Shown here in pieces: positions 43,661-52,895 of a stretch of DNA of 64,000 nucleotides (the first letter of the stretch is position 1; each line of letters opens with the position of its first letter). Location: the NCBI GenBank assembly GCA_032881465.1, contig CP126168.1, positions 744,001 through 808,000 on the forward strand. The letters run 5' to 3'. The translations under genes were made by a program, and so were the position numbers. The stretch is from Parvibaculaceae bacterium PLY_AMNH_Bact1. GTDB taxonomy: Bacteria > Pseudomonadota > Alphaproteobacteria > Parvibaculales > Parvibaculaceae. The notes under the pieces were generated by a model that had not been told where the DNA came from, made no database searches, and saw nothing but the letters and a program-made list of their open reading frames with translations.

Positions 43661-43677
43661 CCCTATCACCAACGACC

Positions 43678-43875
43678 CTCGCGGGAGAGTTCAGGATGCT
43701 GCAAGGCAATCCTGACGCCGAAGGAGCAACCGCCCCGGAAACTCTCAGGCAACCGGACCGCGAGAAGAGGACACTCTGGAAAGTAGGCGCGTAGCGATGC
43801 GGGTCTCACCCAAGGGGATAAGCCAGCCAACAATATTGGCTCGGTGAAATCTCTCAGGTTCACACGACAGAGGGG
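43678..43875 (+). ncRNA. Tandem glycine riboswitch upstream of gcvT
   Basis: Two consecutive glycine aptamers. In the first, P1 is formed by CTCGCGG (43678-43684) and CCGCGAG (43758-43764), enclosing GGGAGAGTTC, CGCCGAAGGAGCAA and GGAAACTCTCAGGCA. In the second, CTCTG (43774-43778) pairs with CAGAG (43868-43872) around TCTGGAAAG, ACCCAAGGGGATAAG and GGTGAAATCTCTCAGG. These are the canonical riboswitch signatures. Glycine binding would permit expression of the cleavage system; the first codons of gcvT are about 50 bases downstream. No clear intrinsic terminator is seen, so control of translation initiation is possible. Confidence 0.95.
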
Positions 43876-51037: not shown

Positions 51038-51076
51038 TATTCAATTCAAAGAGCTGCGCGAACGTCCCTAACTGTC

Positions 51077-51099
51077 ACCCTCGGGCTTGACCCGAGGGT
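51077..51099. repeat. Intergenic palindrome, CCCTCGGG-CTTGA-CCCGAGGG
   Basis: ACCCTCGGG (51077-51085) and CCCGAGGGT (51091-51099) are perfect complements around CTTGA. The sequence context CCCTCGGGCTTGACCCGAGG is a familiar dispersed repeat in alphaproteobacterial genomes. It could double as a weak terminator for either flanking gene. Nothing else was seen between the nucleotidyltransferase stop and 51209. Confidence 0.75.
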
Positions 51100-51209
51100 C
51101 CATATAAGCGTGCCATTTCAACACATTAGAACGAATCTAAACCCGAATCCAAGGCGAGCGAGATCGGGTCTGCCACTCGGGTATTAAAAGTCTGAAGGAC
51201 TGTTAGCGC

Positions 51210-51371
51210 TTACTGGTCGCGCAAGTCATCGTCCTTGGGCTTCTTTGAGCGATCAGTTTTCGCATCACGCCACCACTTAACTGCCTTGTCGACTAACAAG
51301 ACAATGAAGCGACCGATGTCCAACCATTGCTCTAAAGAAAACCCCAGGAAGATGAATGGATCGGGATCCAT
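51210..51371 (-). CDS. 53-residue amphipathic small protein downstream of the RNA array
   Basis: A frame from the ATG at 51371 to the TAA at 51210-51212 encodes 53 residues, starting MDPDPFIFLGFSLEQW and ending RSKKPKDDDLRDQ. GAGGTG lies three bases upstream as ribosome-binding site. One continuous helix, FSLEQWLDIGRFIVLLVDKAVKWWRDAK, is clearly amphipathic, with a Trp-Trp pair and a charged tail. This pattern is coding-like and suggests membrane-surface binding. It follows hairpins and a terminator that end the last RNA unit. I do not recognise a family; a toxin-like peptide or a small membrane regulator are both possible. Confidence 0.6.
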   Translation of the reverse strand: MDPDPFIFLGFSLEQWLDIGRFIVLLVDKAVKWWRDAKTDRSKKPKDDDLRDQ

Positions 51372-51384
51372 TTTCACCTCATTT

Positions 51385-51423
51385 GGGCATGAAAATGCCC
51401 GAAGACAGGAAGTCGTTCGGGCA
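51385..51423. other. Adjoining hairpins in the leader of the 53-residue protein
   Basis: GGGCAT-GAAA-ATGCCC (51385-51400) is a tetraloop hairpin, and TGCCCGAA (51396-51403) can alternatively pair with TTCGGGCA (51416-51423). The two structures share bases and are mutually exclusive. They lie between the terminator at 51425-51458 and the ATG at 51371 on the minus strand, where they could control its translation. Confidence 0.45.
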
Positions 51424-51424
51424 C

Positions 51425-51755
51425 AAAAAATCCCGCCTACGCTGTGCTGCGTGCGGGAATTCGATCAATCAGTTTAATTATTCAAAAATGCAAAATGCCT
51501 GCCCCGTTCGGGTGCAAGCGAATCTTACAAAGTAGCTATGCTATCGATAATGGTAGTCCTAAGGCGGACCTCAATTGCTTGTCGCAGGTCCGCTGCAATC
51601 CAATTTGTACAAGCTACGCACTCCCGCGCAATGCAGGATGATCAACCAATAGCGTCCGCAAAACGCCTGGGGAGGGACAAGCGCGGGCTGAGGTCTCTTA
51701 GGTCTAAAGACTGCCTACTTTCAACGCGGATCCTTGCCGCCTCATTACAGTCTCC
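51425..51755 (-). ncRNA. Candidate structured RNA, tandem array unit A
   Basis: One of four diverged copies on the minus strand. Shared blocks, given as plus-strand text: CCTCATTACAG at 51740-51750, CAACCAATAGC at 51643-51653, and the CCTGC-N5-GCGGG hairpin (read on the minus strand) at 51623-51637. The upstream block GTCGAG is at 51781-51786. A good minus-strand terminator closes the unit: TCCCGC / GCGGGA arms at 51431-51458, with inner ACGC / GCGT pairs, then T6 (51425-51430). No coding frame is conserved between copies. Ends are estimated, not mapped. Confidence 0.6.
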
Positions 51756-51814
51756 AATACTAAGGAAATCGATTTGGCCAGTCGAGCTGTGTTCTACAAG
51801 TAGGACGCGGGCAG

Positions 51815-52092
51815 AAAAAAGCACCCAGACGATCTCACGTTGGGCGCAACACTCCGAATACCAAGAACTATGTCATTTTGGTCCCCCGCGAGCAAATACT
51901 TGGTGCTCCCAGAGGTTCTAACGCACCTTTATGCGTGGTTCGGCAAAGCTCCGCACCGCCCGCCTTATGCAGTTGGCCAACCAATAGCACCTAGTTATGG
52001 GGTGCCTGGGGAAGTTCAGTTCCGTCTTCCGGGCCTTACAGCTCCCCTCTCAGGGCTGCCCGTTCCCGAACCCAAACCTCATTACAGAGGTT
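51815..52092 (-). ncRNA. Candidate structured RNA, tandem array unit B
   Basis: Second copy. Plus-strand text of the shared blocks: GTCGAG at 52118, exactly 31 bases from CCTCATTACAG (52077-52087), then CAACCAATAGC (51978-51988) and the hairpin at 51959-51973 (read on the minus strand as ACTGC-N5-GCGGG, with one mismatch). The terminator is GCGCCCA / TGGGTGC (51821-51847, one G-U pair), followed by T6 on the minus strand (51815-51820). A promoter-like CTCGAC-N16-TGTACC precedes the block on the minus strand. The sequence is very close to unit C. Confidence 0.65.
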
Positions 52093-52141
52093 GAAGGTAC
52101 ACAGAGCGCTCCAGCTAGTCGAGTGACGTTAAGCGAGTTGT

Positions 52142-52394
52142 AGAAAGGCTTCCAAACAGTGCCCGGTAGGCGCAGCATCCCGAATACCAAAAACTATGTC
52201 ATTTCGGCAGCCAGCAAGCAAATCCCTGCTGCCAACGGATGTTCCGACAAAGCTTCGCACTGCCCGCTTTATGCAGGTTGCCAACCAATAGCACCTAGTT
52301 TTGGGATGCCTGGGGAGGTCTGATTTCCGTCACGCGGGCCTTACTCTCCCTTAGGGCTGCCCGTTCCCGAATCTCACACCTCATTACAGTGGTT
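52142..52394 (-). ncRNA. Candidate structured RNA, tandem array unit C
   Basis: Third copy, most similar to B. Plus-strand text of the shared blocks: GTCGAG at 52420, 31 bases from CCTCATTACAG (52379-52389), CAACCAATAGC (52282-52292), and the hairpin CCTGC-ATAAA-GCGGG (minus strand) at 52263-52277. A second stem, GGCAGC / GCTGCC, is at 52206-52233. Promoter-like elements on the minus strand are TTGACT (52434-52439) and CTCGAC-N16-TGTATC. Its terminator (about 52142-52175) looks eroded, so transcripts may run on into unit B. B and C differ by indels that are not multiples of three, arguing against a protein. Confidence 0.65.
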
Positions 52395-52453
52395 AGTGAT
52401 ACACGGAGCGCTACAGGCAGTCGAGTAGTGTTAGTCAAGTTGCATACGGACAC

Positions 52454-52776
52454 AAAAAAGCGCCTGATCGGTCCCCGATAGGCGCAAATTTTAGAATACC
52501 CAGTTAGTGGCATATTAGCCGTCAAATGAAAACTGATTCGTATGCCGAGGACACAGAAAAGCACCACAACGCGAAACGAACAAATGTCTCCCAAAGTGTC
52601 AATCAACTTCGTTCAGTGCGTTTTTGTCATAGTTCCGCTTACCCGCGCCAACGCAGGTTTTCAACCAATAGCTCTAGATCCGAGCGCCTGGGGGCTGATA
52701 ATCACTGTCTCGCTAGGAACTTTTAATCCCCGTATTCGGGCGACCCGCCGCAGTGTCACTCACCAGCCATTACAAA
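52454..52776 (-). ncRNA. Candidate structured RNA, tandem array unit D
   Basis: Fourth and most diverged copy. Plus-strand text of the shared blocks: GCCATTACAAA at 52766-52776 in place of CCTCATTACAG, CAACCAATAGC at 52662-52672, and the hairpin CCTGCG-TTGG-CGCGGG (minus strand) at 52642-52657, where an extra pair is compensated. It has the best terminator: GCGCCT(G)ATCGG pairs with CCGATAGGCGC (52460-52485), followed by T6 on the minus strand (52454-52459). Open frames across this unit show no protein-like composition. Confidence 0.6.
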
Positions 52777-52895
52777 TCTGCTCCGCTGCGAGCCCGTATG
52801 AAACAGGCACAGATCGAACCAATAGAAGAAATATCGCTAAAAACCGCAAGAACCGCAAGATTGGATCGTAAACTTTTCGCACAACTGGCAGGCAA

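What the first reader, a model, noticed from the sequence alone, without database searches (positions are those of the whole stretch)
51425..52776. Tandem array of four diverged structured RNAs on the minus strand
The 2-kb stretch between a nucleotidyltransferase gene and the ATP synthase operon has no conventional gene but repeats a pattern four times, at 51.6, 52.0, 52.3 and 52.7 kb. Each copy has CAACCAATAGC (51643, 51978, 52282, 52662) lying 4-5 bases from a hairpin that reads CCTGC-N4/5-GCGGG on the minus strand. Stem bases are kept while loop bases change; one copy adds a compensated pair and one has a single mismatch. The pairing needs a U-G pair, which works on the minus strand only. 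A second block, CCTCATTACAG, lies 97-104 bases away; in A-C a GTCGAG block lies exactly 31 bases further. Units A, B and D each end in a T6 intrinsic terminator on the minus strand. Indels between copies break any reading frame. This fits a family of sRNAs expanded by duplication. I recognise no known family.
Basis: partly seen in the sequence, partly recalled or inferred. Interest (0 to 1): 0.78.

Follow-up and report, generated by a model that had tools for sequence, protein, structure and literature searches.

The report
Phage-type leader RNA, repeated four times
A bacterial chromosome carries four diverged, tandem copies of a previously undescribed folded RNA, and the only relative found in the collections searched sits at the very start of the late-gene transcript of a bacterial virus, so the array is probably of phage origin and may work by altering, or decoying, phage control of transcription.

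Summary
Four minus-strand units (A-D, 51.48-52.80 kb) share TGTAATG, CCCCAGGC and GCTATTGGTTG; no 8-mer was shared by all four units in 2000 shuffles. Consensus-fold z is -5.1, with 9 pairs changed on both sides. Rfam has no match.

The main new result is one true homologue, in an IMG/VR phage contig (L079, 71.5 bits, E 5e-19, model built without it). There the RNA lies immediately behind a promoter-like site and heads an operon with terminase and portal genes. A NusG/RfaH-type antiterminator gene lies 1.1 kb away. Units A-C have the same promoter-like layout, then an intrinsic terminator.

I infer an RNA that modifies RNA polymerase, put- or dfn-like in action but not a member of either. In the host it is cut short into terminated RNAs, possibly decoys. 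The sRNA-family reading remains a serious rival. The array is absent next to atpF in genus relatives. No transcript has been seen; the mechanism is unproven.

The parts
51617..51751 (-). RNA core, unit A (TGTAATG 5' end, arm P2, P3, P4)
   Evidence: R1 97.6 bits
51952..52088 (-). RNA core, unit B
   Evidence: R1 124.6 bits; 84% identical to C
52256..52390 (-). RNA core, unit C
   Evidence: R1 132.5 bits
52636..52776 (-). RNA core, unit D (P2 pairs 9 of 9, with compensatory changes)
   Evidence: R1 124.0 bits
51757..51785 (-). promoter-like site of unit A: TCGACT-17-TAGTAT, 7 nt before TGTAAT
   Evidence: same layout as in B, C and the phage copy; consensus resemblance only
52094..52122 (-). 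promoter-like site of unit B: TCGACT-17-TACCTT
52396..52424 (-). promoter-like site of unit C: TCGACT-17-TATCAC
51484..51512 (-). terminator-like hairpin ending unit A (weak, -8.1 kcal/mol); a counterpart stands beside the small ORF in relative G006
51420..51462 (-). intrinsic terminator with T6 between unit A and the small ORF (-16.2 kcal/mol)
51810..51851 (-). intrinsic terminator of unit B, T6 (-15.1 kcal/mol)
52140..52180 (-). degenerate terminator position of unit C (no T6, -6.9 kcal/mol)
52454..52489 (-). intrinsic terminator of unit D, T6 (-17.1 kcal/mol)
51210..51371 (-). 53-codon ORF downstream of the array, with ribosome-binding-site-like AGGTG; conserved in relative G006 (38 of 53 residues)
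   Evidence: codon-position differences 13/8/18

Best explanation
The four units are tandem cassettes of one phage-type structured RNA of about 135 nt. In three of the four cassettes a sigma-70-like promoter is followed, starting at about +1, by a conserved three-arm RNA, then about 100 nt of variable sequence, then an intrinsic terminator (degenerate in C). In the phage relative the same RNA is the 5' leader of an operon of structural/packaging genes. Shown here: the fold, its conservation by paired changes, the promoter-like layout, the phage homologue and its position. Inferred: as the RNA leaves RNA polymerase it modifies the polymerase, alone or with the NusG/RfaH-type protein encoded beside it in the phage, so that downstream terminators are read through. 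Also inferred: in the host the cassettes make short terminated RNAs that either read through toward the small ORF or compete with a phage's own leader.
For: Common fold: RNAalifold z -5.1 with 0 of 300 shuffles as good, and -23.2 against -15.2 kcal/mol for the opposite strand. Covariation: 9 pairs changed on both sides, 88% of cells paired; P2 alone has 6 of 9 pairs with double changes. Phage copy: 71.5 bits, E 5e-19 with a model built only from A-D, and its own fold z is -4.7. Layout in A, B, C and L079: (T/C)GAC, 17-nt spacer, TA-rich hexamer, then TGTAAT 5-7 nt on. In L079 the RNA ends about 25 nt before the first ORF of a minus-strand operon that includes TerS, TerL and portal genes. A NusG-plus-KOW protein (Pfam E 4e-11; PHROG 'transcription antiterminator' E 1e-24) is encoded 1.1 kb away. 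Known precedents: HK022 putL lies just downstream of PL and acts through RNA polymerase (PMC9378689); the LoaP NusG paralogue uses a leader RNA hairpin in front of terminators (PMC12691694).
Against: There is a single phage example, on a 10-kb fragment. The window's genome has only its housekeeping NusG, flanked by secE and rplK. No strong, T-rich terminator was found between the phage leader and its genes. Unit D lacks the promoter-like site. No expression data exist. Nothing shows that the RNA touches RNA polymerase or NusG.
Confidence: 0.4

Rival explanations
1. A family of trans-acting sibling sRNAs: four terminated RNAs of roughly 240-320 nt that act by base-pairing or protein binding, like AbcR1/2 or PrrF1/2, possibly taken from a phage.
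For: Tandem units, each with its own promoter-like site (A-C) and terminator (A, B, D); diverged overall with fixed short blocks. Tandem sibling sRNAs are known in Alphaproteobacteria (PMC4211561).
Against: The invariant blocks CCAGGC and GCUAUUGG pair with each other inside P3 in all five sequences, so they are not free seed regions. In the phage the RNA is a leader without a terminator.
Confidence: 0.3
2. A cis-acting leader of another kind (translation control, ligand sensing or RNA stabilisation) that precedes phage structural genes; the array is a relic of several captured leaders.
For: Leader position in L079; a compact conserved fold placed before terminators is also the layout of attenuators.
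Against: Four copies with no ORF between them give a leader nothing to control.
Confidence: 0.17
3. A decoy array: host copies of a phage control RNA that titrate the phage's RNA-binding factor and so hinder late gene expression.
For: Multiple terminated copies of a phage leader in a genome with no related terminase or NusG paralogue detected; the copies are as diverse as the phage copy is from them.
Against: No direct test; quartet support for separate origins is absent; no defence gene was identified next to the array.
Confidence: 0.1
4. Decayed protein-coding or transposon repeats.
For: Repeats in an intergenic insertion of slightly lower G+C than its flanks.
Against: No frame is kept across units. 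All genome-contig hits to the core motif are coding coincidences, mostly with different spacing. Paired substitutions and the phage homologue point to RNA.
Confidence: 0.03

Closest known systems
HK022 putRNA (putL/putR)
   Same: Phage RNA element; putL is just downstream of a phage promoter; adjacent stem-loops (PMC9378689)
   Different: put is about 70 nt with two stem-loops and works with early promoters of lambdoid phages; here about 135 nt, three arms, in front of structural/packaging genes, with a NusG paralogue nearby; no sequence comparison with put was made
LoaP with the dfn leader hairpin
   Same: NusG paralogue linked to an RNA element in a leader, with terminators downstream (PMC12691694)
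   Different: dfn is a small UNCG-type hairpin in Bacillus polyketide operons; here a large three-arm RNA, and partnership with the NusG paralogue is not shown
Tandem sibling sRNAs (AbcR1/2, PrrF1/2, OmrA/B)
   Same: Tandem related RNAs with promoter-like sites and terminators (PMC4211561)
   Different: Those are two copies; here four, 55-84% identical, with a phage 5'-leader homologue and invariant blocks buried in stems
Rfam release 15 families
   Same: none reached threshold
   Different: the array region and L079 gave no match to any curated family

Membership tests
HK022 putRNA | Located immediately downstream of a phage promoter | tested here: met
   L079: TTGACG-17-TAATTT, then TGTAAT at about +1; (as for putL; promoter by consensus only)
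HK022 putRNA | About 70 nt, two stem-loops | tested here: not met
   About 135 nt and three arms
HK022 putRNA | Antitermination through the RNA polymerase beta' zinc-binding domain without other factors | not testable with these tools
   needs transcription assays
LoaP/dfn-type system | Specialised NusG paralogue encoded with the system | tested here: inconclusive
   Present 1.1 kb from the RNA in the phage; not found in the host genome, which has only canonical NusG
LoaP/dfn-type system | UNCG-type leader hairpin bound by the NusG paralogue | tested here: not met
   No UNCG hairpin is conserved in the five sequences. Binding itself not testable
LoaP/dfn-type system | Intrinsic terminator downstream of the leader RNA | tested here: inconclusive
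   Met in host units A, B, D; no strong T-rich terminator in the phage leader
Tandem trans-acting sRNAs | Promoter and terminator for each unit | tested here: inconclusive
   Promoter-like in A-C not D; terminator in A, B, D, weak in C
Tandem trans-acting sRNAs | Expressed as free small RNAs that pair with mRNAs | not tested
   no expression data
Any Rfam family | Match at gathering score | tested here: not met

The most novel reading that the evidence does not exclude
A bacterium keeps an array of diverged copies of a phage late-leader RNA as decoys: each copy is transcribed, terminated at once, and binds the factor (NusG paralogue or polymerase) that a phage with this leader needs to read its late operon. 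It would be an RNA-based, multi-copy anti-phage device aimed at transcription antitermination.
Probability: 0.1. Interest if true: 0.88.

Novelty: new variant of a known kind. Interest (0 to 1): 0.62.

Why it matters
It appears to be an undescribed structured RNA family with a link between a phage late operon and a bacterial chromosome. If it modifies RNA polymerase, it would join the short list of RNA elements known to do so (put, dfn with LoaP) and would be the first I know of linked to a phage-encoded NusG paralogue; that last point rests on my own knowledge, not on a search. It also gives a concrete, cheap test: one leader, one terminator, one reporter.

Tried and rejected
Exact-pattern scan of 84,980 genomes: 16 hits, all coding coincidences. 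L010 encodes QPIADLVYAWGVP in a lipoprotein-like ORF with D's spacing; considered as a coding origin for the units and rejected, since the other units break the frame. Weak model hits in relatives at 15-24 bits (G039, G049, G162, G275, G491, G621): L076 and L278 were inspected and look like chance matches with P2 essentially missing; the others rest on their alignments only. Viral hits L106/L219 are a helicase-like coding sequence (PGHLIVAIGWPGRGKT); L086, L091, L102, L105, L117 and L257 are coding. Seventy-nine loci of terminase relatives of L079, plus MW202785 (which has an RfaH-like gene), MW202478, RHph_N2 and EBPR podovirus 1: no RNA found. blastn of phages and plasmids: nothing. G006 intergenic region scored with the full model: nothing. 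A long closing stem suggested by the four-unit alignment lies partly in the promoter region and is not claimed.

Full report
Observation. The four units share TGTAATG, CCCCAGGC and GCTATTGGTTG on the minus strand; when the units are shuffled, no 8-mer is shared by all four in 2000 trials. Rfam finds only an unrelated glycine riboswitch elsewhere in the window, and nothing plausible at relaxed thresholds in the array.

Structure. Aligning the four units, and later a fifth sequence, gives one fold: an unpaired 5' end with TGTAAT; a long composite arm closed by P2 (nine pairs); one unpaired base; P3, in which CCAGGC pairs with GCU-UA-UUGG around a two-base bulge; and P4, CCUGC/GCGGG. On five sequences 88% of cells are paired and nine pairs show changes on both sides, against about 37-53% paired when the partner is slid by one to three columns. 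The covariation score exceeds all 500 shuffles. These controls lean toward the structure because it was derived from the same sequences, and five sequences are few. A further control, shuffling alignment columns within conservation classes, gives z -5.1 with 0 of 300 as low, and the opposite strand folds less well. Single host units do not fold clearly better than shuffles (z -1.1 to +0.7); the phage copy does (z -4.7).

Coding or mobile element? No frame holds across units, the family hits in the neighbourhood are flanking genes or very weak, and all hits to the core motif in 84,980 genomes are coding coincidences.

Distribution. The array sits between an NTP_transf_6 nucleotidyltransferase gene and the ATP synthase genes. 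The array motifs are missing beside atpF in the six genus relatives. G006 has, in the same place, a homologue of the small ORF and a similar terminator, but no detectable RNA core. Covariance searches of 40 family genomes, 385 of the class and 398 of the phylum found no credible homologue. One family genome (G015) has a contig of 3,914,745 bp, which I remember as the length of Parvibaculum lavamentivorans DS-1; the family is therefore probably Parvibaculaceae (inference from memory).

The phage homologue. Two different patterns met in one IMG/VR contig, L079. The model built only from A-D scores it 71.5 bits, E 5e-19, over its full length. It is 65-67% identical to B and C, while A and D are 55-63% identical to them. 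Quartet bootstraps do not settle whether the host array is a single clade. In L079 the RNA is in a 5' leader: TTGACG-17-TAATTT, TGTAAT, the three arms, then an ORF about 25 nt later and a long gene, a possible spanin, TerS, TerL and a portal-like gene on the same strand. A NusG-domain plus KOW protein, PHROG class 'transcription antiterminator', is encoded on the same strand 1.1 kb upstream. Calling this the late operon is an inference from its gene content.

Host units compared with the phage leader. After P4 the host units run about 100 nt or more to a terminator (strong in B and D, and a strong one beyond A; degenerate in C).

Mechanism. A large RNA emerging at once behind a promoter, with a specialised NusG nearby, points to modification of RNA polymerase, as for HK022 put (PMC9378689) and LoaP/dfn (PMC12691694). 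It is not a member of either: it is longer than put with a different number of arms, and has no conserved UNCG hairpin. In the host genome only the housekeeping NusG was found and no relative of the phage terminase, so in the host the RNAs act alone, through general factors, or as decoys. The sibling-sRNA reading is nearly as likely and would be separated from it by a read-through reporter.

Limits. One phage relative; promoters by resemblance; no expression data; capped searches, none of metagenomes.

Noticed in passing
window 43672-43770 (+): Glycine riboswitch (RF00504, 67.9 bits).
   Followed up: no
window 51210-51371 (-): Conserved 53-codon ORF of unknown function beside the array, found only here and in G006 among 40 family genomes; weak resemblance to a PHROG holin (E 0.18). 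Its ribosome-binding region AATGAGGTG is identical to part of the RNA 5' end of unit C.
   Followed up: partly
window 52817-52825 (-): A fifth CTATTGGTT upstream of unit D without the other blocks; possibly a remnant unit.
   Followed up: no
window 51070-51105: REP-like inverted repeat (CCCTCGGGCTTGACCCGAGGG) beside the nucleotidyltransferase gene; similar repeats at the same junction in L021 and in L025.
   Followed up: no
L079 9573-9980 (-): Protein with an IS1595-type zinc ribbon next to the phage NusG-like gene.
   Followed up: no
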